From NCBI GenBank assembly GCA_922989275.2, contig OV277867.1:37750070-37814069 (forward strand): a DNA stretch of 64,000 bases, given 5' to 3'. A model generated the notes under the pieces. It had not been told where the DNA came from and did not search any database. It saw only the letters and a list, made by a program, of their open reading frames with translations. Every line of letters begins with the position of its first letter. Within the stretch, counting starts at the first letter, position 1. Position numbers and translations under genes: made by a program. Source of the stretch: Gari tellinella (lineage: Eukaryota; Mollusca; Bivalvia; Cardiida; Psammobiidae). This document shows, piece by piece, positions 1,365 through 63,700 of this stretch.

Positions 1365-1619
1365 TTAACCCAATACCCCATTATCACTTTTGAGTTTTGA
1401 AAACATGTGACCACTTAAAGCAGGTTGAAAGTAAAGCAGAATGTGACTTAAGGCACATTCTGCTTTACTTTCAGCCTGCTTTAAGCCATAATCTGCTAGG
1501 ATGTCGAAAATATTTATTATGGTACATATTCATGACTGTATAAAGTTAAAATATTTTCTTCACAATGGAGGAATATATTAAAGGCGTAAAAAGGCGTATT
1601 TATGGGGGTAATGGGTTAA
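1365..1619. repeat. Family A MITE
   Basis: Starts TTAACCCAATACCCCAT and ends ATGGGGGTAATGGGTTAA. The centre is the A palindrome, with arms AAAGCAGGTTGAAAGTAAAG and CTTTACTTTCAGCCTGCTTT around a GTGACTTAAGGCAC loop region. TTAA ends followed by CCC suggest piggyBac-type mobilisation (inference). Confidence 0.85.
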
Positions 1620-1844
1620 AACATATATACATAAACTATAAAATTCTGCCACCTTCTTAAACCTTTTCACCATATAAAAATTAGTTTTATAACTCTATTG
1701 TACAATATATTTTCTTCTAAATTTAAGCCTGGAATGCAATAAACATTCCTTGCTTCTTGCTGGAAGGTTCCATTTTAGATGTACAAGGGTGATTCAAAGA
1801 GACACGTCTGCGTTGTTCCATACAGCTGAACATTTCACCTGAAG

Positions 1845-2048: not shown

Positions 2049-2059
2049 GATACATATTA

Positions 2060-2415
2060 CAGCACTCCCTCTCTACAGCGACATCCAATGGGAGACAACA
2101 ATTGTGTACGTTGTTCGGAGGGAGTCGTTAGAGGGAGGGAAATCGGCTTACATTTGCTAACAGCTTGAATCCAGATCAGACGCCGCGTAAGCGGCGTCTG
2201 ATCTGGATTCAAGCTGTTTGTCACTCATTATTAAGTATTTTTCTGTCAAAATGTTGAATATGTAATTTTGAGAAAAACAGCAGACGACAACTTTAAGCAG
2301 ACGATATTAAAGCAGTAAAGGCGTTAGACATAATTGTCTTGTTTAGGGAACTGCGACAAGATGGAGGGAAGGAGGGAAGCGTTGTTGGGAGGGCCGTTGT
2401 AGAGAGGGAACACTG
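2060..2415. repeat. Family D1a composite MITE, TA-flanked
   Basis: Ends CAGCACTCCCTCTCTACA and TGTAGAGAGGGAACACTG, each flanked by TA. The interior contains a D palindrome (GAATCCAGATCAGACGCCGC and complement), then CAGACGACAA and GCAGACGATATTAAAGCAGT, the sequence typical of the TTAA-type D1b element. It appears to be one MITE carried inside another. Confidence 0.75.
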
Positions 2416-2424
2416 TAGATGTCA

Positions 2425-2783: not shown

Positions 2784-2985
2784 CAGGGCTGCCATAAGCT
2801 GTTCTTGAAAAATCCTAAGATTTCCAAATTTACTATATTTCAAGTGTATTACTTAAAGCATGTTGAAAGTAAAGCAGAATGCGCCTTAATGCGTATTCTG
2901 CTTTACTTTCAACATGCTTTACGCTACAATCTGCTAAGATAAAAATCCGAAGATTTCGGAACAAGCCAGAGAAATGGCAGCCCTG
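2784..2985. repeat. CAGGGCTGCCAT MITE carrying an A-type palindrome
   Basis: TIRs CAGGGCTGCCAT and ATGGCAGCCCTG are flanked on both sides by the same six bases, CAAGAA, a target-site duplication. Inside is the family A palindrome (AAAGCATGTTGAAAGTAAAG and complement). CAGGG ends resemble hAT elements; a 6-bp duplication is shorter than the usual 8 bp. A second copy lies at 50570-50821. Confidence 0.85.
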
Positions 2986-3482: not shown

Positions 3483-3732
3483 TTAACCCCTTACCCCTTG
3501 AATACTTCTTTTTACATCTTAAATTTATTCCCCCATGGAAGAATATAGTTCTTATTTATAGTCAAACATTTATATGTGAATATATATTTGCTATATTCTA
3601 GTAGATGGTAGCTTAAAGCAGGCTGAAAGTAAAGCAGAATGTGCCATAAGGTGCATTCTGCTTTACTTTCAACCTGTTTTAAGTGGTCACCTATCTTCAA
3701 AACTAGAAACAGGCTATAGGGTAATGGGTTAA
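3483..3732. repeat. Family A MITE
   Basis: TTAACCCCTTACCCC at the left end and GGGTAATGGGTTAA at the right. Central palindrome with a GTGCCATAAGGTGC loop region. Confidence 0.85.
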
Positions 3733-3943: not shown

Positions 3944-3993
3944 TAACCTTTTAAAACCAAATGTTCATTTTGGTTTTAAAACAATTTACTGTA

Positions 3994-4197
3994 CAGTACA
4001 ACCTCTCTTTTACTACCACTAAACTGTGTTAATTGTAAGGTGATTCAGACAGGTGACTGCTTAAAGCAAGGTGACAGTAATGCAGAAAGCTCCTTTAGGA
4101 GCTTTCTGTTTTACTGATACCTTTCTTTAAGCTGTCACCTGTCTTTTACATAAACAGTTAGCCATATTTGTATTGGTTTAATAGAGAGATTTTACTG
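3994..4197. repeat. Family B MITE, TA-flanked
   Basis: Ends CAGTACAACCTCTCTTTTAC and AGAGAGATTTTACTG, each next to TA, as in mariner-type insertion. The centre is the B palindrome: AAAGCAAGGTGACAGTAA, AGAAAGCTCCTTTAGGAGCT and complement. Confidence 0.85.
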
Positions 4198-4358: not shown

Positions 4359-4586
4359 CAGTAGACAAGACGTTATTATTTCCCGTTTAAACGCATATGA
4401 AACGCAAAGCACTCAACTGTAAAAATTCACAACTTTTTGAGAGTTCTAAGTATCTATTTCAATCTGAATGGCAAACAGTTAGGAGCCCGATCAGACGCTG
4501 GGTTACCCGGCGTCTGATCTGGCTCCAAACTGTTTGCATTGGAAATAATAATTTTTGCGTAAGGAAAAAAGAACGTCTTCTCCACT
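4359..4586. repeat. Family D2 MITE, TA-flanked
   Basis: Begins TA|CAGTAGACAAGACGTTATT and ends CTTCTCCACTG|TA. Inside are AAACGCATATGAAACGC and a D palindrome with GGAGCC/GGCTCC arms and a CGCTGGGTTACCCGGCG centre. Confidence 0.8.
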
Positions 4587-4606
4587 GTAGCTCCCGATAA
4601 ATAGAG

Positions 4607-6854: not shown

Positions 6855-7105
6855 TTAACCCTTACCCCATAGCCTGGTATAAGTTTTGAAAACAGGTGAC
6901 CACTTTAGGTCGGTTAAAAGTAAAGCAGAATGTGCCTTAAGGCACATTCTGCTTTACTTTCAGCCTGATATAAGTTACAATCTGTTAGGATATAGAAAAT
7001 ATATGTTATAATAAATATCAATGACTCTTTGAAGTGAAACTATTTTTTTCAGTGGTGGAATAAATTAAAGGCGCAAAAAGTTGTATTTATGGGGTAATGG
7101 GTTAA
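6855..7105. repeat. Family A MITE (reverse orientation)
   Basis: TTAACCCTTACCCCATAGCC at left, ATGGGGTAATGGGTTAA at right, GTGCCTTAAGGCAC in the palindrome centre. Confidence 0.85.
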
Positions 7106-7314: not shown

Positions 7315-7566
7315 TTAACCCATTACTTCATAGACACTAATTTCAACACCTTCAATTTATTTCTCCATTGAAGAAGGAAGTTACAATTTATACAGTCCTG
7401 AGTGTGCACTGTAAGAAATATTTTCTTTATCCTAGCAAATGGTAGTTTAAAGCAGGTTGAAAGTAAAGCAGCATGTGCCTTTAGGCACATTCTGCTTTAC
7501 TTTCAACCTGCTCTAAGTGGTAACCTGTCTTCATAACTAGAAACAGGCCATGGGGTAAAGGGTTAA
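7315..7566. repeat. Family A MITE just beyond the DNAJC25 stop
   Basis: TTAACCCATTACTTCATAG to ATGGGGTAAAGGGTTAA. The palindrome arms are intact with TGTGCCTTTAGGCACA in the centre. On the minus strand it lies about 100-350 bases after the DNAJC25 stop codon, so it is probably in the 3' UTR. Confidence 0.85.
7356..7361 (-). terminator. Candidate polyadenylation hexamer AATAAA
   Basis: Reading the minus strand after the DNAJC25 stop, this is the first AATAAA, about 307 bases downstream. It lies inside a family A MITE, whose framework contains GGAGGAATAAATT. Use as the real signal is inference. Confidence 0.35.
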
Positions 7567-7790: not shown

Positions 7791-10700
7791 CTTTGGAAAA
7801 AGAGACAATAAAATTTATCATACCTCATAGATATATCAGTATCTATGATTACGTTTGTGTACTTCGAAAACACTGTATGACCGATTGACAAATGTTGTGT
7901 CTTCCTAGCAAAGTCCTCCAGAAATGAAACTTTTCAGGGTAAACAACCTCCAATATATTAACCTACTGCAAGGGCCATAAATGTTTAATGAATAGATCTA
8001 TTATAAAAGTTTTTTACTGTATTTTTCAGTAACATTGATTCAAAGACCATAAAATATTAACAAAAAATTATTTCTTATAAAAACAAAATGAAGTATTTTT
8101 CTTTTAAATTTAAGGCAGAAAACAGAATGCAGGTGCAGGCAAAAAATCTACTTGGAGCTTTCTTCGATACTTTACATTTGTTTCAAGCTGCCTCCTATTT
8201 TTCATCGCACGTAAAAGTTTCCAAAATAAGAAACCGGAGTAGCTATAGGTTTTGTGTCTATCCCTCTCGTCTTTCAGATTGAACATCAGTTACCTTTAGT
8301 TAAACCTTTTGTTATGGCTAACCATGTATTGATTCAACAATACTATACTTGTTTAACCCTTTCCTCCCTAAAACCTCAAATCGACAATTCTAATTTTCAA
8401 TTTAGTGTAGTCCATTTTTGACTTTTTAGGGTTGATTTTTACAATATATGTCAAAATGACAAACAGTGTAAACCCTGATCAGAGGGCTCCTAAAGGAGCC
8501 CTCTGATCAGGGTCTACATTGTTTGCATAGGACAAGTGTACTCCTCACATGTACGCTGTTTGCAAATGATGCATGTATGCTGCTATAATGCATGACGAGG
8601 GTTCAAAGAGTTACATTTAGTTTCGTTCATAAATGTATAGAACAAATTTTGATATACATGTAAGACTTACTTTAAATTTTTCTTTAATCCAAAGTTCTTT
8701 CTGTATATAAGTGTCCTTTTCATGATCTTCTACAGCCTGAAACAGAAGCGACAGTGAGGAATGTCAAAATACAGTGCTCCCTCTCTACAACGGCCCTCTG
8801 AACAACGACTCCCTCCTTACAACGACCTTTGACGCAATTCCCTTAACGGGATAATTATGTCTAACACTTTCACTGCTGCAATATCATCTGCTTTAAATAG
8901 TTTTTTGCTTTATATCTCAAAGTTACTAACTGGACATTTTGACAGAAGAAATATAAAGACGAGTGACAAACTGTTTGAACCCAGATCAGACGCCGTGTAA
9001 TGCAGTGTCTGATCTAGGTTCAAACTGTTTGCAAATGTAACTCTGACTGTATAAAGCTGTTCACATTCAACCTATATTGAGGCCTGAAAGTTAAATCAGT
9101 TTACAAGAGTTATCAAGTGAGGGAAATGTTTAACCTATCACCCCATAAATGATAAATATGCCTTTTATTTATTCTTACACAAAGGAAAATACTTTACAAC
9201 CTCAAAATATGTATCATATGAAATATTGTCTATATTCTAGCAGATGGTAGCTTAAAGCAGGCTGAAAGTAAAGCAGAATGCACCTTAAGGCACATTATGC
9301 TTTACTTTCAACCTGCTTAAAGTGGTAACCTATCTTCAATAATAGAAACAGGCTATGGGGTAATGGGTTAAACTACAGAATAACTGCTTAATAATGTGCC
9401 TGTTCAAGTCAGAAACAAGACTTCTAGGCAGAAAACATGGAATGTTTGTGATTTAAATATGTTTAACGTATTCAGCATTGGGAAATAAGGATTAAACTTA
9501 ACATTAATATCTGGCACTAGCATTGCGAAGATAGACAGCAGTTGAAGTGCCTTCATATGCCACCCTAAATATGAAGTTCCACATAAATATTCAATGGTTG
9601 ACTTCCCAGATATATTCTTCAAGCAAAAACACTTCCATCAGATTAATTTTGCCTTTTTGTTGGAGAGGATTTCAAACTCTGGCTTTGAGGCAATTCCGCC
9701 AAAGTATAAACAGAAGTAAACTTACAAATCTCACCACTCTATTAATCGGCATCGCTTTCCTATAATGTTCACAGTCCTGAATGATTAGCATTGATGATAA
9801 TTTTCCAAGAATGAAATCGTACAAAAATCCATTTTAATCAATGAATGAATTGAACGAGTCGAGTTAAGTCAAAGAGAATAAGAAATCTTGATCAGGGCTG
9901 AAAATGTTTGTAGATCTCAACTAAACTTCTTAGCCGAGAAACGGAGAAACATCCTGAGTTCAGCATACATAGTTAGATTTAGTGCATGAAACGTATGCGA
10001 AGCAGCACGGACATATGACTAACAAAACTCAGCAATCTGTTTAAAAACGAGAGCACCACAAACGGGTGCTGGTCGCTCCACTTTCTCATACTTCAGATGG
10101 CTACACATTCCAAACTTAAAGAATGTGTATGCGTGTTTGATGCTTTCTTGGTCATTGAAGTTTGTAAGCAACAACAACTCATACATACTTGAATATACAT
10201 AATTATGTTTACTACGTAGTAATAGGTAAATCAGTAGCCTAAACCCCAATGGTATTCCACAGAACTGCAGCTTTACACACATTTAACCCATTATCCCATA
10301 GCCTGTTTCTTGTTTTGAAGACAGGTGATCACTAAAAGCAGGTTAAAAGTAAAGCAGAATGTGCCTCAAGGCACATTCTGCTTTACTTTCAGCCTGCTTT
10401 AAACTACAATCTACTAAGATATAGAAAATATTTCTTGATTGTATAAAATGAAACTATTTTCCTTGATAGAGGAATAAATTAGAGGCGTAAAAATGCATAG
10501 TTATGGAGCAATGGGTTAAGCCAAACATATTAACTCATTTCATGCGGGATACACTTTTAGGTGTACCTCTAGGCAAACAGTTTTAATCTCAGATCAGGCC
10601 CTACACAAAAACTGAGATCAAAACTGTTTGCAGCTAAGTCAATATTCTATCAGAAACTGCTAAAATAGTTTGCAAATATTTAAGTTATACCCGCTGCAGA

Positions 10701-13700
10701 CGACATTTTAAAATGGCCGCCAAATATTACCCAGCATACAATGGGTTAAGCAGTGTTAATACTTACATCAAACTGACTAGAATTGAGTTTTAAGTTTTTC
10801 CTAATGAGATACATTTTCTCCTCTTCTCCATATTCCTGTTTCATTATAGTGAATTTCCACAGCCAAGTCATATACCATTTTATATACATCACTATATAAT
10901 ATGGACTAAACGCTAACTGAATCCACAGTACATCCTTATAGGATGGCCTTCGATAGCCTCCCCTGAAATATAACAATTCAATATCATAATTGAAACTATG
11001 ATAGCAGATTATGATAGCAGATAATACAGTAAAACCTCTCTATCACGACCACTACAATGGAGGGTAATTGATGGTATAAAAGACAGTTGACAGCTTAATC
11101 AAGATGACAGTAAACCTTGTAACCTTGCTTTAAGCATTCATCTGTCATAAAAACCTAATAATTAACACAATTAAGTAGTATTAAAAGAGAGAGTTATTCT
11201 TTCCAATTTAAACAAAACTAACCTCAAAAACATTGCAATAAAACACAGAAAGTTGTAACTATTTGAGAACTTTGAATACTTATTTTAATCGGAGTGACAA
11301 ACATTTTGGAGACTCATCAGTCCCAAGGTTGGTTACTCAGAGTTTGATCTGGCTCCAAAATATTTGTAATGGAAATGCTTGTTTTAGCATAACATGTTTA
11401 TTGGAAAAGCAAAGTGTCTTCCCCACTGTACAATATAAATCAATGAATAATAGTGCAGGTTCTATATATCTAAACTTTTGAGTAGTTTTAACAGTAATAG
11501 TAAGTGTAACCTCCACAAACTGAGCTCCTGATATACTCGATTTAATCCAAAATGTGGACAATTTCTCAATCTAAAACATTTGTTTTATTTGCTAACCAAT
11601 TTATCAACAAAGACTGTCAAGGAGGTATACAGAGCTAACACAGCATGAGCTGCTAAATGCTGAACTACAGCAATGCTGTTGACTTGCATTAAGCTACCAT
11701 CTGTCTTTAAAACCTGAACATTCATACTATTTTTAATTGCTGCTAACCCTCTTCAACCCATAGAAGCCACCTGTTAGTGTATTCAATTTATTCATAAACT
11801 GGAGATGATAGTTCCAATTGATACAAAACTTTGTAAACATGTACCAAAATATATTTTTATATGCTTAGCAGACAGTAGCTTTAAGCAGGCTGAAAGTAAA
11901 GCATAAAGAGTCTGAAGGCACATTCTGCTTTACTTTCAACCTGCTTTAAGCTGACACCTGTTTTCAAAACGAAACACAGGCTATGGGGTAACGGGTTAAG
12001 ATATCAAAATAAACTTTATAGCCAAAATTGGTTTCAACATTTACCAAAATTGAATTACAAATATCTTACCGTATATCCATATTTTCTTCGATTATAGACT
12101 TAATTATCGCCTCCTCTTCTTCTCTAACTTCTTCCTGCAAGTAGATGGCAAAGAGTTCATTAGAAACATTTAGGTATTGAAATCAGCATATGAGGGTGCT
12201 TCAAAAAGTAATGATACTTGATCAATAACTTCAATATAATAAGTACAAAATGTATGTGTGATACATCAAGCTATAATTGAAACCAATGAAGTAGATTTTT
12301 AGGCAACAAATTGCTCTTTAAAATGATGTATCACACAGGCATTTTGCACTTATTATATTGAAGTTATTGATCAAGTATCATTTCTTTTTTAAGCACCCTC
12401 ATATCTACTACTTAACCCATACCAACAGACTGGCACTTGTTTACAATTGAACCCCTCTGCAAGACAATAATTCTAAGGAGTTAACTGTCTTACCTATTCC
12501 CACTTTATCCATCTGCGCACATACTCAGACTTGATATAGCTACATTCTGAGTTTGGTTGGGGTAGCACTTATACCTTTTCAGGTAACAGATCTAACACAG
12601 AAACTTAACTTTGGAGCTAAATCCAATTGTTTGATGCTGACTACGATAGACAAACAACACCTTATGTTGTTAGTTCACTTTGGTGCCTTCATTTCTGCAA
12701 GGCATAAAATAACTTCAAGCATTGTAAACTCATACAAACTTACTTTATCTGATTGGAAATTTTAATTTTATTTATATACAATCTACCCTTGTTATCTCTG
12801 ACTCAGTTTAATAGTGACTCTATCCCAAATTTCAAGGTTAAAACATGGCTCAGCCATGTTTTAACCTTGAAATATGGATATGTTTGACTTAGTTGAGCTC
12901 AATTTGTCAAATTTCAACTGCAGTCCAAAATACACGAGTTCAAACATACCTTTTTCCTCCTTTTCTTTGAAACAGGCAGGAGGCCCCTCTCTGTTCCTAT
13001 ATTCACTGCCTTAAGTCTGTATTTCTGTTCCTTACAGAGGTAGCTAATGGCTGTCTGATAGTTGTTCCATGCTCCGTAATACTGAAATTTTACACAATAT
13101 ATTAATCAAGAAATATTTTATTCTTTTAATTTTCAGTTTCATCACTATTTTGTCCACTATTACTGCTGATCAGACATCATGTTTCTGAAACAGCAACAGA
13201 TTTACTTTTTCTGTTGTTATATTGGTGACTTGGCTTATATATGCATCTATACTTTCACGGTTTCCCAACTAATATGTGTATGTGAGGTTTAATATAGCCC
13301 CTAAAACTAATTACCCCTTGAAACTTAAATGGACAATTTCAGTTCCCGAATTCAGTCTAGTCCATTTATTATTATGTACTATACATTTTGTACATGTATG
13401 TGGGTCTATTTCTGCAATATATTGCATAATGACAAACAGTGTAGACCCTGATCAGAGAGATATTTTTTAGAACCCTCCGATCAGGGTCTACACTGTTTGC
13501 ATATAATTATGAATGCTCTTTACAGGTATACTGTTTTTAAATTTACGAGTATATTCGTAGTTAAGATTCAAAGAGTTTAATCACATATGAATATTCAGCA
13601 GGGGAAGGATTAACAATTCTTACCTGAACCACAGATATCACAGTTACTGTAACCGCTATTACAATTCTTATGTCTACTTTTGGTGCTGTCCTAGTTCTAT

Positions 13701-16700
13701 AGTACCTATAGTAGTTATAGTAGAACTCATCTGAAATTACACAACAACAGTGTCAAGATCAACAATCTTTATTAACCCATTACCCTATATATGGCATGAT
13801 TCTTGGTTTTGAAGAAACCTTACTCTCAGGACTCTCATAAGTAATGCCTGTTGACCAATCCATTTGATTATGTGACTAAAACATTGTTTAGACCAAAGCT
13901 TACTCTACTTTACTTAAAGCCTCTTTTAAGCTTCTATTTAAAACTAGAGATGTGGCTGTTGAGTGTTAAACAATTCAATTTAATCCTTTTCTTTTGAGAA
14001 TAATTTTACCAATGCTTATTCTGAAAATTGAGGTAAATTATAACTTTTCCCACATCCTGACATGTAGCTGCTTTAAGCAGGCAAAAAGTAAAAAGCAGAA
14101 AGCTCCTGCATGGGCTGCTTTATATTCTCCCTACTTAACCCATTACCCCATATATATGCCTTTGTACTCCTCTAATTTATTTCTCCATCAAAGAAAATAG
14201 TTCTGTTTAATTTAGTCATGAATATGTATCATAAGAAATATTTCTTTATTCTAGCTGATGATAGTTTAAGCAGGCTCAAAGTAAAGCAGACTGTGCATTA
14301 AGGAGTGTTCTGCTTTACTTTCAAACTACTTTAAGTAGCCACCTATCTTCAAAACTAGTAACAGACTATTGGGTAAAGGGTTAAGAATCCACCTGGCTGA
14401 AACATATTAACACCTGTCTAAAACACTGCACTATTGCCCCCTCCCCATTAGAGAATCGTGTAACCTTTCCTTTACAAATAAAATACATAATCTTACCTGG
14501 ATGGTCTAACATATAGTTGTAATCATTTCTGGAATCCTCATCTCTCAAAATCTGTTGGGAAAAAAAGAAGAATTACATTTCAGGTCCACTTGATAGCTTA
14601 CATATAACTTGTCTCCTACTAATAGTGTATATTGACACATTTTGAAAACAGTGTAGACCCAGATCAGACAGCTCCTTCAAGAGCTGTCTGATCAGGGTCT
14701 GCTCTGTTTTCTTACAGGATCGGTCTGAAATGAGTGTGCACTCTTGCCTTCAGATTAAAAAACTCCTCATTTAATAATAGTTCAGATGACACCTGTTCAA
14801 AGTGGGTAGCCTTTCAAAGTTTCATAATTCAGCAAGATTATATTCTCTTCATAAGTTCTCTTCTCTTCACAATTATTTGATGGTAAGTAAGCTAAATTCG
14901 TCCATTTAATGATACCTGTTTTAATCAATTCCTGTCTACTTTTACTTCTCAAGTTTGAATCAATCCAAATGAAAGCAAAAGTAAAAACATATCTGAAGAA
15001 AAAAAATTACCTCATAGGCATTAGCTATCTTTTGAAACATCTCGGCCGCTTCATCTTTTCTCTGGAAAAATAACAAACAAAACCTCCTTATTAACCAACC
15101 AACATGCCAGGTATAACTGTGCCATTATAACAATGAACTCTTCCAACACTAAGTAACTCTTGTGGGTTATTAGGTTCCCTTGTGGATCATTTTAATTACC
15201 AAAATATGAACCAGTCTACCTGGAATTCTGGGTTGTTTAATAAATACTACTCTAACTGTTGCAAACCGTGGAGAACCAGATCAGAGGGCTCCTACAGGAG
15301 CCCTCTGATCTGTGTCTACACTGTTTGCAAATGTAATGACTATATTTCAAATAGCTCCATGGTGTTAAAGAGTTAACTACATATAGAACATGCAATTATC
15401 TAGTCTAATAGGCTTGAACTCATTGAACCCTAGCGACGGGTATACTCATCCTTAACATACAGTGTACATGGGAGGAGTATACTTGTTCTAGCAACAGTGT
15501 AGACACTGATCAGAGGGCTCATATAGGAACCCTCTGATAATAAGGATATGTACTGTTTTGTCATTTTGCACTATACATGTATACATGTATTGCAAAACGA
15601 AAATGGACTGGTCTTAATTGGCAACTGGTATTGTCCATTTGAAGTTTCCGGGGTGAATAAATGTTTTTATGCTCAATTGTTGCAAAGAGATAAAAGCCAG
15701 GCCTTTTTCTGGTGTATCCACGGGTCCGGTAAACGGACCCATTCCCAATGGGAAATGGTAAAAAAATATTCCCAATTCTCAAAAAAAAATTCCCAATTTC
15801 CTAAAAAAAAAAATTAATTTTTAAAAACAGGTTGTTACTGATAACACAGATTGAAATAAAAACTAATAAAACAAGTGGAAAGAACTACTAAATGACATTG
15901 TTTTGGCCATTTAGCTTCAATATATGTGAAATAAGTTCTAGAAATTCTTCCCAAAATATGATTTTTTGCGCCAAAATTTCCCAAGACAGATATTGCAGTT
16001 TTTCCCAAAATGGCCAGAAAAAGGCCTGAAAGCAACTTTGCCATCTGATAAAATCTTCCAACAAATAATACGCACTAAGCAAATAAAAGTCAAGATGTTA
16101 TAAATAGCAACACAAATTATTGTAATGAAGAATTTCGAAAGCGAAAACTGAAAATGAAATGACTCAGAGAAGAAGCTTTTATACTTACATCAGCTTTATG
16201 CATGTCTGGATGCCATTTTTTGGCCAACCTTCTGTAAGCTTTGACGACATCGCTCTGAAAAAGACAAACAACTTGAGATTTGTTTTCATTGAGAAACTGA
16301 TGTCTCCCGCATCCTCTCCGCCACCACCAACCAACACATGCACTGTGAAATAGCTTCCAAAGCACATTTTAATATCCTACCGCGCTCCCTCTCTATAACG
16401 ACATCCAATGGGACACAAAAATGTGTGCGTTGTTTGGAGGGAGTTGTTATAGGGAGGGAAATTGTTTACATTTGCAAACAGCTTGAATCCAGATCAGACG
16501 CCGCGTAAAGCGGCGTCTGAACTGGATTAAAGCTGTGTGTCACTGGTCATTATGTCACTGGTCATTATGTGCTTTTTATCAAAATGTCCAATATATTGAT
16601 GCCCATCAGACTCTTTCTAGCTTTGAAATTCCGTTTCACACTAGCATCAGAAGAACTGGCACATTCTGCTTTACTCTCTGCCTGCTTTAGCTACATTGAG

Positions 16701-19700
16701 GTGCATTCTGCTTTACTCTCACTGTCTAAGCCTGCTTTAAGCTACAATCTGCTGGAATATGGAACATATTTCTAATCGATACATTTTCATGACTGTATAA
16801 AAGGACTATTTTCTTCAGTGGAGGAATAAAAGGCATTTAAAAAAGTGAAATTTTCTGAGTAATAGGTTAATCCATTTCCCAATAGCCTGCGTTTAGTTTT
16901 GAAGACAGATAACCTCTTAAAGCAGATTGAAAGAAAAGCAGAATGTGCCTCAAGATGCATTCTGCTTTACTTTCAGCCTGCTTTAAGCTACTATCTACTA
17001 GGATATAAAAACTATTTCTTATGGTACATATTCATGACTGTATAAAGTGGATATATTTTCTTCATCGGAGGAATAAATTTGATGTGTACAGGGGTACAGG
17101 GTTAACCCTTTACCCCATAGCCTGTTTCTAGTTGTGAAGATAGGTGGCTTTTTAAAGCATGTTGAAAGTAAAGCAGAATATGCCTTAAGGCGCATTCTGC
17201 TTTACTTTCAGCCTGCTTTAAGCTACTACATGTATCTACTAGGATATAAAAACTATTTCTTATGGTACATATTCATGACTGTATAAAGTGGATATATTTT
17301 CTTCAGTGGAGGAATAAATTTGAGGTGTATAAAGGTCTATTTAATCCATTACCCCATAAATACGCCTTTAATATATTCTTCCACCAAAGAAAAAAGTTTT
17401 AATTTATACAGTCATGAATATGTACCATTAGAAACATTTTCTATTATATTCTAGCAGACGGTAGCTTAAAGCAGGCTGAAGTAAAGCAGAATGTGCCTTA
17501 AGGCGCATTCTGCTTTACTTTCAACCTGCTTTAAGTAGTCACTTATCTTCAATACTAGCAACAGGCTATGGGGTAAAAGGGTTAAGGGGTACAGGGTTAA
17601 GGTAATAGAAACAGCTCATTACTGATATTACATGCATATGATAATTTTACGTCGACAAATTAATATTTTGGCTATATCACTCATCTTGTATTTGCACACA
17701 GTCTGGATCCAGATCAGATACCCAGTATCTCAGCATCTGATCAGAATCCAAACTGTTTGGCACATGTTACAATGTATTGTATGAAAATTTAGATTTTGTC
17801 AGTTAAAGACAATGAAACTTATTTGGAAAAACAAAGTCATAATTTTTTAAGCTGACATATTACAATAGGAGAAAGCTATATATTAGTGTCAAAAATATCA
17901 CTGCCTGGGGCAAACAAGAATGACAAACTAATCATGAATTGACAGCCAAACCGTAGACAGAATATATACATGGTTCTTTTTCACTAGTAAGGAATGTAGT
18001 TAACCATTTAGTTATGCCCTAGTTTGTTTTGAGTTTTGAAGACAGCTGACTTCTGAAAGCAGGTTGAAAGTAAAGCAGAATGTGCCTTAAAGCAGGCTGA
18101 AAAGTAGAAAACGGTATATGCGAAAAATTACTATGATCAATGGACAGCAATTCTTTGAGGGGTAAAACAGTATGGGACTGTACACCAACCCATACCCCGC
18201 TTATCATAGCTCAGAGTATTAGGAATAGGATGGTTCCTCTAATGACAGTCTATTGCTAGACCAAAGAAATACATCCCTTTTGTTCTGCATTAACCCATTA
18301 CCCCATAAATACGCCGTTTTACGCCTACAATTTATTCCTACACTGAAGAAAATAGTTCACTTTTGCACAGTGATGAATATAATTATATATAAGAAATAAT
18401 TTCTATATCTTAGCAGATATTAGCTTAAAGCAGGCTGAAAGTAAAGCAGAATGTGCCTTAAGGCACATTCTGCTTTACTTTCAACCTGCTTTAAGTGGTA
18501 AGCTATCTTCAATATTAGAAAAAGGCTATGGGGTAAATGGGTTAAGCTACCATATTTATAAGACTGTAAATGTATCTACCCTGGAGTAGCTACTGTACAC
18601 ATGTATGCCTTACTGTAACAGTGTAACAGGGCTCCAGATAAAGGGGAGTATTTACTGAACAAATCAACATATTCCCTCTCATCTTAGCACCAACTCCTAT
18701 TGTGTTACTACTCATTAGAATCATCTCTCCCCTTATCTGGAGCTCTGCTGTAATAAAATGTGTAATGTTAGATTTAGTATCACTTACCCTTTCAGCCTCT
18801 CTGTCAACACCAAGAACTGAAATGAAAAGGAACTAACTTTTTAAATCTGATATGTATGTAATACCCCTCTATTACAACCACTGTGTTAATTAATAATTAT
18901 TGAATGTTTACGACAGGTGACTGCGTAAAGCAACGTGACAGTAAAACAGAAAGCTCCTTAAGGAGCTTTCTTTTTTACTCACTTTACAATCACATTGCTT
19001 TAACCCATTACCCAATAGCATGATTTTAGTTTTGAAAATAGATGACCACTTAAAGCAGGTTGAACGTAAAGCAGAATGCGCCTTAAGGCGCATTCTGCTT
19101 TACATTCAGCCTGCTTTAAGTTACTATCTACTAGAATATAGAAAATATTTCTTGTAATACATATTCATGACTATATAAAATTTAACTATTTTCTTAAGTG
19201 AATGAATAAATTAAGAGGTGTAATAAGGCGTATTTATGGGGTAATGGGTTAAACTGTCAAATGTATTTTATACAATTAGCCTTTGTTTTAATGATCGTTC
19301 TATAGAGAGGTTTTACTGAATATGTGCAATTATGATAATTACATTTCTTGAGTTGAAAACTGTTTTAGCATCAACTTGCTACAGTACCAGAATTAAATAA
19401 CCCAACTAAATGTGCAGAGCAAAATATGTAGTATGATGTTCTGGTCTGCAAGCAACTACCAACTAGTGCATTGGTTCATTTACAATTTATGGAAATGTTA
19501 TTTAAAAATAGTTTATTGCAAATATTTAATTTTTTTCTTTCTTTTTCTTTTTTTAAAGTATCCACTAAATATCTGTATCTAGGGTTGAAGACAGGTAACC
19601 ACTTAAAGCAGGTTGAAAGTAAACCCTATAAATGAGCCTTAACTTAAGGTGTACCTAGTATTCTGTTGAATGATCAGCCTGCTTTAAGATACCACCTGCT

Positions 19701-48700: not shown

Positions 48701-51700
48701 AGACATTGCTCTACAATGGCATTCATACGATGAAGTCACTGCCGACGATATAGCTAACGACATGCCAGGTCTAATAACCATGTTATTCGACCGACTTGAA
48801 TCAAAATATGGCGAGATGTTTGTGCATCATGCGCTGTCTTACATCACTGCTGCAAAAGACGGGTTGTCACTGACTGAGCTAGAAGATATACTTTCCTGTG
48901 ATGACAATGTCTTGAACAGTGTGTTTGTATGGTGGGTACCTCCCATTCGTCGCATCCCTCCCCTCCTCTGGGCAAGAGTCAGAAATGACCTAGGAATATA
49001 CCTATCAGAACGAGGTACAAATGGAATAAGCGCATATGGCTGGTACCATAGGCAGTTTTGGGAAACAGCAGCGAAGCGTTACCTTGACACTACCTTTGGA
49101 AAAGAGACCGGACCTTTTCGTGAAAAGGCGCACGAGGCCATAGCAGACTATTTTGAAGGAAAATGGGAAAACGGAAAACCTTATGTAAGTTCAAAACCTG
49201 GTGCATCACAAACTCCCAAATTAGAAGATCGAAAGATTGCAAAGCAGCCAATTGTCATTAGCGGAAGCCGAGAGACGGGTAGGCAAATAAACCGCAGGAA
49301 GCTAGCGGAGCTACCATACCATTTTATACAACTAAAGCAGTGGGAGCGGTTCCAGACACTTGCTATGGACTTGAAATACATAGAGGCGGACTTTGAATCT
49401 GGGAACGGGTTCAACTGTCTAAGTGAACTTATAGAAGCTACCAAACTGTCCAAGGTCGACGATATCAAACAGATGACAAGATTCGTTGGAGCAAACCTGG
49501 GTTTCCTGATACGAGAATCACGAGGCGTGTACCAAATGGCATTCCAGATGTCACGGAGAAGTACAATACGAAAACTGTTGGAAAAAGTCGACAAGATAGA
49601 TTTGCCTTTGCCATTGATGACCAATATGCTTGAAGAAGATTTTAATGATCCGTGTGAAATGACACTACATGGGCATACAGAGACCATTCGTACCTGTGAT
49701 TACTCGCCTGCAGGTTAGTACTCTATCATACTGTCAAAATACATATAAGCCGTACCATGAGACACCTGACCTATTGCATTACAAACACTGTAGATCAAGA
49801 CCAGCCGCCACGTCAATGGAGCTGCGGCTGTCCTTGATCTACACTGTTTGACACCCACATGCATCAAAGCATTTTATCTAACAGTAGTATAAATGGTATT
49901 TGGCAGTGTAGAAGAAACTCATATACATAGCCTGAGATTACAAAGGTCTGTAAAATTTTGCAATACGGCTGGTTTTGTCATGGCACGGTTCATATGTAGG
50001 TTTTATTTGTACTGAAAGACTACTTGACGCTCCTATTTTCACAAAAGTAGCCAAGCAGATTCAGCTTAAATCAGTCTAAAACTAAAGCAGAATGAGCCTT
50101 AAGGCGCATTCTGCTTCACTCTCAACCTGCTTTAAGTGGCAACCTGTCCTGAAAATAAGACTGACCTGGCTATGGGGTAGTGGGTGAAGAGACCGCTGGT
50201 ATAAGGAAGTTTGGGTTTCAGAGTTTATACTGTTTAGATAAATGCATTTGTATATGTATGTACAGTACAACCTCTCTATTACAACCACTAACGTGTGTTG
50301 ATTATAAGGTTTTTTCGACAGGTTTATGCTTAAAGTAAAGTGACAGTAAAACAGAAAGCTCCTTTAGGAGCTTTCTGTTTTACTGTCACCTTGCTTTAAG
50401 CTGTCACCTGCTTTTTATCGAATCATTTAGTCTTCGTTTTACTGGTCGTGATAGGGAGGTTGTACTGTATATTTATCAAGGAACATGATTTTGTCTCTTA
50501 TTTTAACACTAACCGTCACAGCCCAACATGATATCAAGATTGTCGCAGAGAACAAAGTTCAGCAAACCACAGGGCTGCCATAAGTTGACGGGAAAATCCT
50601 AAGATTCCCAAATTTGCATTTTTCAAATGCGATTTTACGAAATCGTACCTTTACCCCATAGCCTGTTTCTAGTTTTGTTGACATGTGACTACTTAGAGCA
50701 GGCTGTAAGTAAAGCAGAATGCGACTGAATGCGCGTTCTGCTTTACTTTCAGCCTGCTTTAAGCTACCATGTACTGGAAAAATTCGAAGATTTAGAAAAA
50801 TCCGGAGAAATGGCAGCCCTGAAACCATCACTGCTATGGCTGTAAACAAACATTATTTTGTTGTTTGTTTTCAAGGCGACCTGATCTTGTCCTCGGCGGA
50901 TGACTCTACAATGCGAATCTGGGATTCTACAACGGGGGCAGAGCTCGTGTGTATTTCGTCTCTTCCGGAACCAGTTTGGCCCACCAAACAAGAGACAAAC
51001 CAACTTATGCTTCACCCTGTCAATCCAGCCTGCTTCTCGAGAACTGGCGAAACTATTGGCAGCGGAACTGAACAAGGGGGCGTAATGGTTTGGGACAAAA
51101 GTGGCGGTCAGGTACAGTTTAATAACTCCTCATCCTTAAAGGGACTCGCAACCGGATGGTGTACTTGTCAAAATAAAATAAAATACTCAAATAAAAGCAA
51201 ATTTGTGGCATTATTTGGCTTCTGACATTAAAAAATATGATCAGTCCAAAAAAAGTCTCAAGAATCGTCACCGAATCTTAGTTTTTTTTAGATATTTTCC
51301 ATCGTTTTTCTATAGCGTCAGCTGACGGTATAGTTGTTGTTGTTGCTTCTCTACACGGGCTCAGACATTAACCCAAGCCGAATAAAGTACTACCAATCGC
51401 TACCAGTGAAGTACGTTAATTAGCTACCATATATAGAGAGAGCGCTGGTAGCCGAGGGGGTAAAGGCGTTTCCTCATTTTTCATGTTTGTCTCCGCATGG
51501 AGGGTCACGGGTTCCAATCCCACCAGAGCTTCTTCTTCTTTTTTTAAAAGCATTTTTAACAGAATTTATTATCCTAAACTAAATCTTACCCATTTATATT
51601 TATCATTTGACATATATTTACAAATTACTATTTTTAATGCTAAATCCGGTTGCGAGCCTCTTTAAGATCATCCTATAGATGGTACTTAATCCATTTCCCC

Positions 51701-54700
51701 ATAAATAGTCATGTTATGCCTATACAAATGTAATTTATTTCTCCACGAAAGAAAAAATCCCTTTTATACAGCCATGAATATGTATCAAAAGAAGTATTTT
51801 CTATCTCCTAGCAGATAATAGCTTAAAGCAGACTAAAAGGCGCATTTTGCTTTACTTTCAATCTGCTTTAAGTGATCGTCTTTCTTTAAAACTAAAAACA
51901 GGCTATGGGGTAATGGGTTAAACCAAGTGACAGCTGATTGTAAGATGAAGGTAAAATAACGAAAAAAACCTTTAGAAACATGAGCTAACAACTGTATATT
52001 TGACAATTCTGCTGCATATTTGGCATGTGGAGACCAGTCACAATGTAAAGTTCAAACTGACATATCCCGCTGAGCCAAGTCTATGCATTTAAAGGGACTC
52101 GCAACCGGATGGTGTTCTTGTCAAAATAAAATAAAATACTCAAATAAAAGCAAATTTATGGCATTATTTAGCTTCTGACATTAAAAAAATATGATCAGTC
52201 CAAAAAAAGTCTCAAGAATCGTCACCGAATCTTAGATTTTTAGATATTTTCCATCGTTTTTCTATACCGACTAGTAGACGGTATAGTTGTTGTTGTTGCT
52301 TCTCTACACGGGCTCAGACATAAACACGAGCCGAATTACGAAGTTGTATGCACTTTCGATCGCTACACATTGAAATACGTTAAATCGACCCGAGATAAAC
52401 GGATAGTTCCGTGGTCCATTGGTCTAAGCGGTTTCCCCTATTTTGCATTCTGTCCGCCAATGCCGGGCCCCGGGTTCGAATCCCACCAGAGACCAATATT
52501 TTTTTTTTATTGAAATACATTTTTTTAAACAGAATTTCTTATCCTAAACTAATTCTTTACCATTTATATAAGCGTTTGACACATATTTACAAATTACTAT
52601 TTTTAATGCACCATCTGGTTGCGAGTCGCTTTAAGGAAGAAAACTTTTTTTATAAAGCTATGCTATTCTATAGTCTGCCTACGGATCGAAAATAAGGCTC
52701 TGGAAAATGGGTCTCATGGCATGTCGTGTAGACGGGCAACATCCACTTGATTTATATTCAGCATATGTATACGAACAATTCTAGGGGGGATGTAAAGTTC
52801 TTAGGCGCGTATTAAGGTCAGAAATAGGTCAAAGGTCATGGATACAAGTCATTTCGTACCCAAGTCATTTCGTACCCAAGACATTTCGTACCCACATCTT
52901 GGTCATTTCGTACCCAAACCATTTCGTACCCAAGACATTTCGTACCCACTATCATGGTCATTTCGTACCCACGCACGTTTGTCACTTCGTACCCATATAT
53001 AAACAACCCCATCAAATTCCCTCTATCGTGGTCATTTCGTACCCACGTACGTGGTCATTTCGTACCTATATATAAAAACCCATCAAATTCCATAATTCAA
53101 TAATTTTGGTGAATATTTTCAACGAATAAACACTATCAAAGTTATTGATTATTATTTAGTTTAGTTTAAACATATTTATTTGCATAATAACATGTGCAAA
53201 GGGATTGGGCTACAAGTTATTACAACATTATCAATGGCCCTTTCCCTAGATATATACAAAACAGTGGCATAGCATAATAAAGTAGAAATTACAATAGTTA
53301 CTTTGTTAGAATAGCAATCGATGGCACAAACGGGTGATGTTTATACTCATTTACATTAATACAAATTGTTTAACGATTTTCAAAAAAAGTTGTAATCGAC
53401 TATATAGTCATTGTATCCAGTAAAGTGTTTAATAGGATAAGTAGGATAAGTTTCAAATACTCTTTGAGGTACAACTTAATGGCAAAGTATTGGTTTTAGA
53501 GTGCCACCGGTTAAACTAAAGCAAAGCAACATAACTATATATAACAATAGCATAAACTTATTGTTGCGTGTTTGTTGAGAATCGCATGGTATCGTGGATG
53601 TACTTATGGACTGTCTGAAAGATATGCATATTAAAATCAAGAGGTTTCGATTCATCTCCAGATAATAGGAGATCTAAGGTTACTTGATTTATATGAGATA
53701 GGTTGTTTAACATAATGTTTCGTGTTTGTGTGTATAAGGGACATTCAAGAAAAAAATGAAATTAATTTTCGCATGGACTTCCGCATCTACATGATGGATC
53801 TGCAACTAGATTACAACGAAATAAATCGTAGTTTAAACAACTACATTGATGTCTTAGCCTGGTATGTAGGATATTATTCTTACGTGTTCCACATTGATAG
53901 AAAGTTGGTAATTTATCTATATTACTCCCTAGTGCGGTCTTAAAAGACTGTATGGTAGTTTTGTTTCTAACATCCTGATTTAAGGCATTCCAGCTATGTG
54001 TGGTTGACACTATAAATGCACGTTCAGTTAGACGTAAGCGTGTATTTGGGATATTATAGTCATTATTATTTCTTAGTGGATAATTAGATACTTCGCTTAC
54101 AAGAGGAGGTAGTATATTGCTAAGATATGGTGGAACAGACTGGTTGTGCATTTTATAAAACAAAACAAGTTTCTTTTTCTCTCTTCGAAATTCTAAAGTC
54201 TCAAGTTCTGCTTCTCTATAAATAAACTCTTTTTTACAAAATATCGGTAACCCACATGCTATTCTTGCTGCTTCTAATTGTATGCTTTCTAGTCGTTGCT
54301 TATCGACCTGAGAACAGCCATCCCATAATTCTGATGCGTATTCTAATACTGGAAGGATAAAACATTTGAAAATTTTTAATAAAGTTCGTCGGTTTAGAAT
54401 GTATTTAAGTTTTCTTAACACAGAGACCTTTTTCATACAAGATTGATATATACTATCTATATGGGAAGACCATTTACAATCAGAAGATAAATTTACTCCT
54501 AAATGTCTATGAGAAGAAACGGGTTCGAGTAAGTTGTCATCAAATGTTAAGTTTAAATTGAAAGAGTTAGTTGAATTTGTTATGAATAACACATTAGTTT
54601 TATTTGGGTTAAACTTTATCAACCATGTTTTGGACCAAGAAGATACCCTTTCCAAATCTCTGTTTATTACAGCTTCTATTTCATTAACGTTTTGAGAAGA

Positions 54701-57700: not shown

Positions 57701-60700
57701 TAAAGTAACAATTCTAAATGCCAATAGAAGTACATATTACAGCTAATGCCCTTTTCCAGGGGCAATAACTCTGATTTTTCTCTTTCTATTTTATTTTTTA
57801 TGGGAATTCGTTTTCGTTATTTTTTGACTGTTTTCTTATAACATCAAACTTTTGTATGTTTCTTTACACCTTTGACATAAAGCAACGATTCAATATGCAA
57901 ATAAAAGTAAAACTTACAGTCAATGCTCTATTCCAGGGGCAATAACTCTGTTTTTTCTGTTCCATATCTCCTTTTTAATAGGAATTATGAAAATTAATTG
58001 TTATGCTATTTGCAATCACTCATAGATAACCTAAAACACTTTAATTTCTTGAATGTATAATTGGTCGAAAAATCTAGAAATAGAATTTTCGTGACAGAAA
58101 AAACAATAATAAGTCACAAACAAGGGCGATAACTCTTAAAATAAGCCAGTAAATCACGTATTCTGTATAGCTGGGCACATTAGAGAAAAAATCATAAACT
58201 TGATATACAATCATCAAAGTAGGTTTACATAATATACTGATATGGCCTTTCTTTCAACAAAAAGCCCTTTTGCACCGTAAACATTCAAAATGGCCGCCAT
58301 TTTTCGGTTCTCATATACCATTTCTCTTCTAACATTTGACATGTATGACCAAATTTTATACTTTTGGTGTTGAAATATATGTTTTTAAGCATTGGCAAGG
58401 TAATCAAGAAAATTTTAAATTGATATGAAGCTTACTTTAATGTATAATGACCAATGTTTGAAAAAGAAACGTGTTTGCTTTAAGATGACCGTTACCTTTT
58501 GCACTAATGATTAATTTCGTTTCTTAAATTTTCTCATACATGACCATTAGTCAAACTTTCGGAGTCGAAGGTAGTGTTAAAAATCACTAATTTTGTGATT
58601 GTATATTTATTAAAGAACTTGTTTAATTGGGTATTGACTTACTTTTGGCAAATACATATATATATATATATATGGTTTATGAATAGTAAAGTAGTAAATC
58701 CTGTTTGTTGTTGTATTATTGCTTATGATGTGTGTATATATTCATTGTCATATTCACAAATTTATTAATCTGAACAAAAGCGGCAACATCGAAAATACAG
58801 GCATCTGTCACTGCAATCAGTTTTCTTTAGCGCATACGCTTAATCTTCGCAACTATATCTATATCCAATAAATAGCAGCCTAGTCTAATGTATCAGCAAA
58901 AAATTCCGTGTGTTTAAACAATGCTGCTTGGCTTGTAGGAATTGCAAAGTAAGGTTTTTGCCACTATCAGGCAAACACGTCCAGTCCAACACAATAATTG
59001 CATTAAATACAACTTATCTAATGGCTTGTCATACATAGCAATCGCAATGTTTTCAAGACTTTACTGTTTCTACATTTTAACTAATAGTAAATAAACAAAA
59101 AATTGTAAATGTAAAATATTTTCCATGAAATGCATTCGATGTGGTCCATGCAGCCTTTTCTCTTTCCATATGAAAACCATCTAATACGAATTAACAGAAC
59201 ACGAAATATAATGCGTTGATTGTGTATGTTCAGATCTCACAGGGTCAATTAACACAAATATTAACTTCATTACGGGAAACCAGCTCAAGTTTGATTGTTG
59301 TACAAAGGAAACCAACTCTTTCTGTATACCAATATCTTTTAGCAAAGGTAATTCTAAGCCCTTGCTGCACTGGGCGGTTTGTTAGATGTATTTTGTATTT
59401 CGACAAGTTAAAAACCGAAAGACGCATCCAATGCTGTAGACCAATTTGTTTAGACAGCGTTAAAGGATGCTGAAACAAAAGACATTAGCCATCTTTTGTT
59501 GGACGCGATGTGATTGCAGAACCCTCTCATTGGTTAAGGACTTTACAAATTATTGATTCAAGGAGTGCAACACCGACTATTTGCTCCACCCAAAAAACAA
59601 AGTCAAAGACATTAGCAAGTATTTATAGAGACACGAGATCAGACAAGCAACAAGTATAGAAACAGATAAGACCTGACCTTATTAAAGCTCAAGAAAGATC
59701 TCAAGGATGTCAGACATTCGGAGAGTATGCTCAAGCATTTGTTCAGTCGGTATATTCCCATTTAACAGGCACACCTACTCGTATTGATGTCACATTTGAT
59801 ACCTTGGGAGCAGTCTATCAAAGCTGCCACTGGAAAAAATCACAGGTCCAGAAGACCCACTACCTGGACCCACTACCGCATGTCAGAGAGCCATACCTTG
59901 TGCTCGACGAGAAGTAGAAATACATGTACATTGCCGAGTTTCTATCATCTGAATGACACATTATTACCACAAGGGTTGCTTGTTGTAGCAGATGGAACGT
60001 TCGTAGGCTTTATAAATGCAAAGTCATATAGCTTCCATGCTGATAAGTTGTCGGTCGATAATAAAGAAGCTGACAATAGAATAATATTCCATGCTAAGGA
60101 TGCTGTTGCAAGCGGGTTTGATCGTCTGATTGTTATATACAGGGACACAGACGTAATACTGTTGATGCTTTGTAGGAAATGACGTGTTAATATGGATGTT
60201 ATCCGGTACAGCAAAGCAAAGGGGATGATTCCTTGTTAACAAAATATATGAGGCACTCAAGGTCGACAAAACATCATAGGTTTCCATACCTTAACTGGTA
60301 TATAGACACTTGCTGGTATAGGCAACTCATGAAAGTCAAGACAGCCTTGGACCCCATACACACACACTAATTATGTATCACCCCCAATTGGATAAGAAAT
60401 CCCTCTATCCCAATGGCATACATAACATGCAACACGCGTCTTGCTATTGCAAGACAAAGTGCAGCTCGGCAAAATGTGCTTGCTATAAAAGCCAACAAGT
60501 ATGCATGTATGAATGTGGTTGTGAGGCAACACACTGTGTAACTCAGATTAATTGGTAGCATGCGTCTTTATAAGAATCCCCACATTCTCACTTTTGCTAG
60601 ACGCGTCATTGTAAACTGAATGTATGTAGATCGATGATCTGATTGTTTCATAACGAAGCATAATGCATGTCTTAGTACATCCAATTGGTGATGAAAGTTC

Positions 60701-63700
60701 TGTAAAGTTCGCAAGTTTGGTCAAATGATACCACGAGTGTATGGTTTGTGATTGTTCTTCTTCGTTCAAATATCTCTAAAAGGATATTGATATTGTAAAT
60801 GTTCATTTGTAAAACTGTACGTATTAAAGTATGTGAATAATTATACAGAATGTTTACATCTAATTAATTTGATATGTGTTAAAATTACACGTATACAGGC
60901 TGTAAAGCACAACTTCCCGTCAAAAATTGTAAATACACCATGTTTTAGCCAGATACATAGTAATAACCCTTGGATTTGTCACAAAACCAACGATAACATT
61001 TTATAGAAATTCGAACCTAACATATTCATCCATTATGTATGTTCATGTCAATACTGTGTTCCTAAGAAAGTAATTCTTAATATAATGATACTTTCCCCAA
61101 AGTGAATTTAAGAGAAACTCATTTGGCATCGCATACAATCCAATCTTTTGGCTTTTTTATATATCGGGGTTGTCTGTATGTATACCCTAAAACGCATATT
61201 TCAGTGATGAATTTCCATAGTGAATTACTGCTTCATGTCAATGATGTTTATATACATGTACATAAAGTAGTTTGATTTTATAAAAAAACAGACGATAAAT
61301 AATAAACAAACAAACACAAAGACATAAAAAAGAAAGAGAAAAAAACAGAGTTATTGCCTACAGAAAGAACAATGACTGTAAGATTACATTTGATTTGATT
61401 ATTTAATTGCTGTTTTTATTAAAATGTACTAGGTAAACCCAAACAAATTCGATATTATAAGAAAATAGTCAAAAATAACGCAAACAATTCTCATTAATAA
61501 TTGTTTAATTTGACTCATTTTAAAAATGATTTTACAAACTTACTATAACAATTTTATAATCTTGGTAATAATATTGAAAGAATTTCCATGTTTCCATGCA
61601 TCTCAATATTGTATCATTTTTATTGTGAATGTAGTTATTTGTCTTTCTCGCTTTGTAGGTACATTGATATAATTTCATGTGAGGCGCTTTTGAACGCACA
61701 ACTCCTGTGTGAAAAGAGCGCTATATAAATCAGGTATAATAATAATAATAATAATAATTAAATATAAAATAGGAATGGAAAAACAAGAGTTATTGCCCCT
61801 GGAAAAGAGCACTGACAGTAATATTAACTTTTATTTGCATATTGAACTGCTACTTTATGTCAAAAGTGTAAACAAACATAAAACATTATAAGAAAACAGT
61901 ACAAAAAAACGAAAACTAATTCCCATTTAAAATTAAATATGGAACTGAAGATCAGAGTTATTGCCCATGGAATAGAGCATTGACTATAATATTTACTTTT
62001 ATTTGCATATTGAACTGCTCCTTTGTGTCAAAAGTGTAAACAAACATAAACACATTATAAGAAAACAGTAAAAAAAATAACGAAAACAAATTCCTATTAA
62101 AAAAGAGATATGGAACAGAAAAAACAGAGTTATTGCCCCTGGAATAGAGCATTGACTGTAATTTTTACTTTTATTTGCATATTGAATCGTTGCTTTATGT
62201 CAAAGGTGTAAAGAAACATACAAAAGTTTGATGTTATAAGAAAGCAGTCAAAAATAACGAAAACAAATTCGCATAAAAAATAAAATAGAAAGAGAAAAAT
62301 CAGAGTTATTGCCCCTGGAAAAGGGCATTGGCTGTAATATTTACTTTCATTTGCATTTAGAATTGTTACTGTATGTCAAAGGTGTAAAGAAACATAAAAA
62401 TAATTTGATGTTATAAGAACACAGACAAAAATAACGAAAAAATAACTATAAAAATATAAAATAGAATGAGGAAAATCAGAGTTATTGCCCCTGGAAAAGG
62501 ACATTGACAGTAATATTTTACTTTTTTGATAATATTAAGCAAGTACAGACATTTGTGAACTAATTGTAACCAATAATAGTTCATTTGATATATTTGAAAT
62601 GTAAATAAAGTTAGGTTTATATTATGGTATGCAAAAATCTGCACCCGTTGACCTTTGACCTCATTTCTGACCTTAATTTGAACTTTTCGACTTTACATCC
62701 CCCCTAGAATTTCTAAGATATGTTCACTGAACACGAATCAGGTGGATGTAACCCGTCTACACGACATGCCATGAGGGGTCAAAAACGGTCAAAATGTTGG
62801 TAGACTACTAAGTCTTTATTCTGTCCCAGAATCACTTGTAACATCATGCTATGCCACCGCTAAACAAAACGTTGCATGAACTAATTTACATGTACCCATG
62901 TTTCAAAAATATAACTAGATCTAACTAAAGTGAACCTCAATATATGTTGACCCATTTTGTCTAATCAAATGTCGTACTAGCTATATTATATAAAATAAAA
63001 ATATAAAACAACATGAATGATTTTAAACACTTTAAATAGAATTTACTTTTTTGCCAGACGTTGGGATCCAGATAAGATCCTGCGTTACTTGGTTCTGATC
63101 AGGACCACATAGTTTGCACATGCTATTTAACCCTTTCCCTTATAGAAGCGACTTTTAGCACATTCATTTTATTCATCCGCTGCAGAAAATAGTTCCAAAT
63201 TATACCGTAATGAATATGTGTCATATTAAATTCTTTCCTTATTCTAGCAGTTAATAGCTTAAAGCAGGCTGAAAGTAAAGCAGAATGCGCCTTAGGGCGC
63301 ATTCTGCTTTACTTTCAACCTGCTTTAAGTAGTCACATATCTTCAATACTAGAAACAATGCTATCAGGTAAAGGGTTAAGTCAATATTGATAATGAAAGG
63401 GGTAAATTACTTGAGCCGTGCCATGAGAAAACCAGACTCATTGAGATGCAATAACCGTTTTCATTTCGCATCTGTATCTGAGTTGTGTTTGTACTGTCAA
63501 ATATTGTATAAAATACTGCTACATAAAACTGCTGTGAGTGTCATATACACATCCTGACCAATCGCCGCGTCTTTGACCCGGTGGCTTGTCTGGATATACA
63601 CTGTTTGCAATGCAATAAATCTGGTTTCTGATGGTGCTGCTCATCTATCTGATAGATGCACGCAGTCAAGACAAACAATCTCGCAGTGACATCTGTAAGG

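What the first reader, a model, noticed from the sequence alone, without database searches (positions are those of the whole stretch)
1365..63379. The same hairpin cores sit inside MITEs with unrelated ends and target sites
Two palindrome lineages recur. The A/B core occurs in TTAA-target elements (A, e.g. 18290-18545), TA-target elements (B, e.g. 50263-50467) and 6-bp-target CAGGG elements (2784-2985, 50570-50821). The C/D core occurs in TTAA elements (C, D1b) and TA elements (D2, D1a). A and B also share the flank GACAGGTGAC..CTTAAAGCA. TTAA, TA and 6-bp targets normally mean different transposase families, so the 60-70-bp hairpin seems to have moved between carriers and then been amplified with them. 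Repeated capture, hairpin-templated copying or selection for the hairpin are possible; nested insertion followed by deletion is the conservative explanation.
Basis: partly seen in the sequence, partly recalled or inferred. Interest (0 to 1): 0.88.

Follow-up and report, generated by a model that had tools for sequence, protein, structure and literature searches.

The report
Hairpins shared by nested mini-transposons
The same short DNA hairpins sit inside several unrelated kinds of tiny transposon in this large genome, mostly because one tiny transposon landed in another and the pair then multiplied, and the two halves of each hairpin have changed together in a way that plain decay would not give.

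Summary
A/B-type and C/D-type palindromes recur inside TTAA-, TA- and 6-bp-target elements. Cores are very common (232 in 200 kb of random stretches; 0 in a shuffle).

Most of the sharing is nested insertion plus truncation. The CAGGG carrier H1 contains TTAA element P1 from 5 bp inside its end through the hairpin; 1,813 exact copies of that arrangement lie genome-wide. TA carrier M2 contains TTAA element P4 from its very end through the hairpin. One TA element holds a nearly whole P1. TA carrier M3 shows only weak, post hoc traces. M1 (TA) and P1 (TTAA) share the palindrome plus about 12 bp on one side; that route is open.

Core trees put M1, M2, M3 and P3 each on one side of one branch, M2 and P3 among P4 cores and most H1 inside P1: rare captures, not a promiscuous hairpin.

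New point: between lineages the two arms differ at the same paired sites, while single copies decay mostly one arm at a time. Selection for the hairpin and slow template switching both fit; neither is shown. Transposases were not identified.

The parts
18290..18545 (+).
18424..18495 (.). A core palindrome, two 36-bp arms, 97% complementary
1365..1619 (-). P1 element with A core
3483..3732 (+). P1 element with A core
6855..7105 (-). P1 element with A core
7315..7566 (+). P1 element with A core
9130..9371 (+). P1 element with A core
10283..10519 (-). P1 element with A core
11744..11999 (+). P1 element with A core, first base of the consensus not aligned
14135..14384 (+). P1 element with A core
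16867..17585 (.). Three P1 elements end to end (16867-17105, 17102-17343, 17341-17585); the first two share a TTAA, the middle one lacks 16 bases of the consensus end
19000..19252 (-). P1 element with A core, inserted at the TTAA on the edge of a B core (18912-19011)
38436..38687 (+). P1 element with A core
41882..42128 (+). P1 element with A core
51686..51921 (+). P1 element with A core
63127..63379 (+). P1/P5 element with A core
2784..2985 (+). H1 (CAGGG) element with A core, duplication CAAGAA; lacks the P1 flank between the left end and the core
50570..50821 (+). H1 (CAGGG) element with A core and the P1 end remnant, duplication AAACCA
50263..50467 (+).
50319..50410 (.). B core palindrome, 45-bp arms, 87% complementary
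3994..4197 (+). M1 (TA) element with B core
39119..39323 (+). M1 (TA) element with B core, left end decayed
39849..40048 (-). M1 (TA) element with B core, one end decayed
2060..2415 (-). M2 (TA) element holding a truncated P4-type TTAA element with C core
4359..4587 (+). M3 (TA) element with C core
28668..28913 (-). M3 (TA) element with C core
34226..34472 (+). M3 (TA) element with C core
35573..35799 (-). M3 (TA) element with a partly deleted C core
43889..44124 (-). M3 (TA) element with C core
36340..36578 (+). P4-type (TTAA) element with C core
43370..43587 (+). P4-type (TTAA) element with C core, last base of the consensus not aligned

Best explanation
These are short non-autonomous elements in which a 66-96 bp palindrome is a standing part. 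Shown: the palindrome sits at a fixed place in each carrier and nearly every flank-defined carrier copy in the sample has it. Shown for three carriers: the palindrome lies inside a recognisable piece of a TTAA element that is nested in the outer element: P1 in the CAGGG element H1, P4 in the TA element M2, and an almost whole P1 in a TA element of L017. H1 and M2 were then multiplied as units. Suggested, not shown, for M3: a P4-like motif pair beside the core in old copies. Open for M1/P1: the palindrome plus about 12 bp on one side is shared and the direction is unknown; loss of flanks around a kept palindrome, as in the H1 copy at 2784, could give this. Inferred: captures were few and single, and the travelling hairpin is the most durable part of nested elements, durable because palindromy is kept or renewed in the lineages that multiply.
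For: Consensus comparison: H1 79-203 matches P1 247-118 reversed (130 bp, 89%), M2 91-265 matches P24 2-176 (76%). With 16 H1 copies the match starts 5 bp inside the P1 end and runs about 16 bp past the core; with 10 M2 copies it runs from P4 base 2 to 179 of 213. 883 + 930 exact H1-P1 arrangements genome-wide, 0 in the control, most listed ones with the same spacing. L017 aligns to both sides of P1. Carriers without a core hit: 0 of 6 H1, 1 of 80 M3, 1 of 27 M1, 2 of 46 P1, 3 of 14 M2. Core trees: M1, M2, M3, P3 one change each; M2 and P3 among P4 cores; 16 of 17 H1 in one fork with 3 P1.
Against: M1 and P1 share little beyond the palindrome, and M3 and P4 flanks fail the plain alignment tests (long side 1345 of 2000 shuffles as good; p 0.12-0.84); the test that succeeds was designed after seeing the sequences. 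No empty H1 or M2 was found: that search did not complete. The trees rest on about 70 columns and most forks are open; H1 needs 5 changes and P1 7. The 20 fetched H1 loci were chosen by the left junction, so only the right junction is an independent check.
Confidence: 0.72

Rival explanations
1. The hairpin is itself mobile, or is copied from carrier to carrier by hairpin-templated synthesis, independently of the ends.
For: M1 and P1 share the palindrome and about 12 bp on one side only; M3 and P4 share little beyond the palindrome.
Against: H1, M2 and the L017 element carry TTAA-element sequence beyond the hairpin. Core trees show few transfers. In the listed young M3 copies 61 single and 0 double arm changes were counted, and the T:T mismatch of M3 is kept in the listed copies except one, read by eye.
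Confidence: 0.12
2. Ends were exchanged: one element lineage kept its middle and acquired new terminal repeats.
For: Would explain why M1 and P1 share only the middle.
Against: Needs both ends replaced together; in H1 and M2 an old end still lies inside the new ones, which is nesting.
Confidence: 0.08
3. On the arms: palindromy is kept by selection on the lineages that multiply (a useful hairpin in DNA or RNA).
For: Three M1 sites agree between arms in 45, 47 and 44 of 50 elements against 28.7, 30.0 and 32.1 expected. C lineages differ at 2 to 8 paired double sites. Single copies show mostly one-arm changes: M3 161 against 9 complementary doubles, P1 164 against 21 (14 of one type), M1 121 against 12, M2 59 against 0.
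Against: One-arm changes also multiply: M1 site 15 (40 of 50 against 40.8 expected), M3 T:T, P1 C:A, and a changed left-arm base in H1. Only 7 of 50 M1 elements have fully identical 25-letter arms. The set of P2/P4-type cores shows 19 complementary doubles against 56 singles, which subfamilies may explain. No function was found; the core does not change predicted pairing of the ends in RNA.
Confidence: 0.4
4. On the arms: slow template switching during replication copies one arm from the other, with no benefit to the element.
For: A published mechanism makes such paired changes (PMC8794818, abstract, introduction and passages). In 58 M3 copies 9 complementary doubles were seen against about 2 expected.
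Against: 0 doubles against 61 singles in the listed young M3 copies; 0 against 59 in M2; P1 without its recurrent types shows few.
Confidence: 0.35

Closest known systems
Nested or chimeric MITEs (general knowledge, no paper read)
   Same: A short element inserts into another and the compound multiplies under the outer ends.
   Different: Here the nested pieces come with a palindrome whose arms co-vary, and the same palindrome lineage is found under three target types.
MADE1 and the mir-548 family, palindromic MITEs that became microRNAs (PMC1784062, start of the abstract in a listing)
   Same: Short palindromic transposons able to form hairpin RNA.
   Different: There the element is palindromic as a whole (recalled); here the palindrome lies inside elements with separate ends. 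No small-RNA evidence here.
Template switching that creates and maintains hairpins (PMC8794818, abstract, introduction and passages)
   Same: Explains paired changes in both arms of a stem.
   Different: Described for RNA genes; the word stem 'transpos' does not occur in its main text. In the MITE copies here single-arm decay dominates.
Satellite-like repeats spread by non-autonomous elements in bivalves (PMC7492417, PMC5139131, listings only)
   Same: Short repeats carried about by non-autonomous elements.
   Different: Those are tandem repeats; here the shared part is a hairpin in elements with terminal inverted repeats. That this genome is a bivalve is not established.

Membership tests
piggyBac-like MITE (P1-P5) | TTAA target duplicated at both ends | tested here: met
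   Most P elements listed begin and end with TTAA; some ends carry a changed base. The TTAACCC start as a piggyBac mark is recalled.
piggyBac-like MITE (P1-P5) | a matching autonomous element with piggyBac transposase | not tested
   The PF13843 search did not complete.
Tc1/mariner or pogo-like MITE (M1, M2, M3) | TA target duplication | tested here: met
   TA on both sides in 22 of 24 M3, 4 of 4 M2 and 6 of 9 M1 rows.
Tc1/mariner or pogo-like MITE (M1, M2, M3) | a matching autonomous element | not tested
   No search was made.
hAT-like MITE (H1) | 8-bp target duplication (recalled as typical) | tested here: not met
   13 of 16 H1 copies with both ends have an exact 6-bp duplication, 3 have none recognised; so H1 is called a CAGGG, 6-bp-target element.
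Rfam RNA family (cores as known RNA) | match above the gathering score | tested here: not met
   Only one tRNA-like match in the window.

The most novel reading that the evidence does not exclude
The palindrome is a module useful to short transposons whatever their transposase: picked up by nesting, then kept with its arms renewed together by TTAA-, TA- and 6-bp-target elements, so that on the order of a million hairpins fill the genome.
Probability: 0.27. Interest if true: 0.78.

Novelty: new variant of a known kind. Interest (0 to 1): 0.5.

Why it matters
It offers a clean case in which parts of short elements with different target sites can be traced through nested capture, with over a thousand copies of one junction. 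It also makes a question testable: why do the two arms of these hairpins differ together between lineages that multiply but decay singly in copies? If hairpins help short elements multiply whatever their transposase, that would be a general rule for the success of such elements.

Tried and rejected
A/B and C/D as one ancient core: B-D p=0.015, A against C or D not among the 30 best pairs listed; not accepted. Preferred TTAA insertion at the A-core centre: 3 of 147 P-type ends (2 elements) against 74 of 5675 TTAA sites; no enrichment, though that scan missed two insertions at core edges in the window. Core as a helper for pairing of the ends in RNA: no effect in 7 consensus elements. Rfam: one tRNA-like match. 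Plain flank alignments of M3 against P4 and M2: not significant, short side 36 of 2000. P6, a further TTAA carrier suggested by flank clusters, gave no rows for the tree. Selection of cores with perfectly palindromic queries could favour intact palindromes; the M1 set, chosen by its ends with a free interior, does not have that bias. Paper searches: of which 25, 47, 61, 62 and 80 found no paper with all terms. No claim is made that the phenomenon is absent from print. The species was not identified.
Full report
What was examined. The window lies in a 1.6-Gb genome of 80 contigs. I used the window, seven loci brought in by a core-flank pattern (an eighth overlapped and was dropped) and 20 random 10-kb stretches, 285,147 bases in all, and later 20 short H1 loci.

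The hairpins are real and very common. Three typed palindromes (A, B, C) give 328 non-overlapping hits at E<1e-2 and 250 at E<1e-5. Of these 232 lie in the 200 random kb: about 1,160 per Mb and 15,804 bases. One dinucleotide shuffle gives none. Scaled up this would be roughly 1.8 million in the genome, an extrapolation from 20 stretches. 208 strict palindromes were found, 43 of them outside A/B/C; some of these sit in further short elements.

Carriers. TTAA elements P1/P5 hold A; P2, P3 and P4 hold C. TA elements M1 hold B; M2 and M3 hold C. CAGGG elements H1 hold A. Flank-defined elements without a core hit: 0 of 6 H1, 1 of 80 M3, 1 of 27 M1, 2 of 46 P1, 3 of 14 M2. Genome-wide, M3 flanks with a free core give 25,423 + 25,585 places, and M1 ends with a free interior give 7,580 elements, of which the 50 listed all have B-type arms.

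Nesting in H1. In the sample the H1 consensus carries P1 from 5 bp inside its end through the core (130 bp, 89%); 4 of 6 H1 keep the P1 flank and 2 have lost it. Genome-wide there are 1,813 exact arrangements of the CAGGG end with the P1 flank, 0 in the control. Of 20 fetched loci 16 read to both ends; 4 were dropped for lack of a recognisable right end. 13 of the 16 have an exact 6-bp duplication. The loci were chosen by the left junction; the consensus shows a common right junction about 16 bp past the core.

Nesting in M2 and at L017. M2 carries P4 from its end through the core; the consensus used the 10 of 16 copies with both ends, against 14 P4-type elements. The TA element at L017, about 1060-1410, aligns to both sides of P1 with a gap of about 50 bp; it is a single case.

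Unsettled carriers. Old M3 copies keep a motif pair also seen beside P4 and M2 cores. Plain tests fail; only a test designed after seeing the sequences succeeds (0 of 4000 for P4 and for M2; 0.001 for P6-type flanks). M1 and P1 share the palindrome and, on P1's short side, about 12 bp (p=0.0003 and 0.0007 against two M1 left sides, 0.002 and 0.03 against two right sides); P1's long side shows nothing significant. Decayed B cores with M1-like surroundings are frequent, so that link looks old, but the direction of the exchange is not settled. The H1 copy at window 2784 has lost the P1 flank beside the core, which shows how a palindrome-only remnant can arise.

Trees. On core-only alignments (80 rows and 74 columns; 79 rows and 69 columns; most forks open) M1, M3, M2 and P3 each need one change of label; P4 needs 3, H1 5 and P1 7. 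16 of 17 H1 lie in one fork with 3 P1 (89/80), and M2 and P3 lie among P4 cores. So cores mostly follow carriers, with few captures. Cores weaker than E=1e-6 were left out, as were four H1 loci with broken cores; the M4 row duplicates a P1 row.

Arms. Each of five consensus cores has one unpaired position of 33-45, in two sets at the edge pair. Between M3, P24, M2 and P3 the paired double differences number 2 to 8. In M1 three variable sites agree between arms far beyond expectation, a fourth does not (40 of 50 against 40.8), and only 7 of 50 elements have identical 25-letter arms. Copies show mostly one-arm changes: M3 161 against 9 complementary doubles, P1 164 against 21 (14 of one type), M1 121 against 12, M2 59 against 0, the P2/P4-type set 56 against 19. 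The M3 excess (9 against about 2) leaves room for slow template switching; 0 doubles against 61 singles in listed young copies and the kept T:T mismatch speak against a fast one.

Verdict.

Noticed in passing
window 4607-4799 and 5021-5213: Two further short elements with ends CAGGGCTCCAGATAAG, identical 6-bp flanks (atagag, atacag) and another internal palindrome, related to a second palindrome found in elements with ends CAGGGGTCCGTTTCATAAAACTTC.
   Followed up: partly
window 16867-17585: Three P1 elements stand end to end, the first two sharing a TTAA.
   Followed up: no
window 18912-19252: A P1 element is inserted at the TTAA on the edge of a B core.
   Followed up: partly
L009 4301-7056: A stretch of about 500 bp holding M2-type sequence recurs three more times at about 650-700 bp spacing, 83-89% alike.
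   Followed up: no
L027 8791-9111: A P1 element sits in the central TTAA of an older A core.
   Followed up: partly
window 22969-23026: A tRNA-like match just above the Rfam cut-off (31.1 against 29 bits).
   Followed up: no
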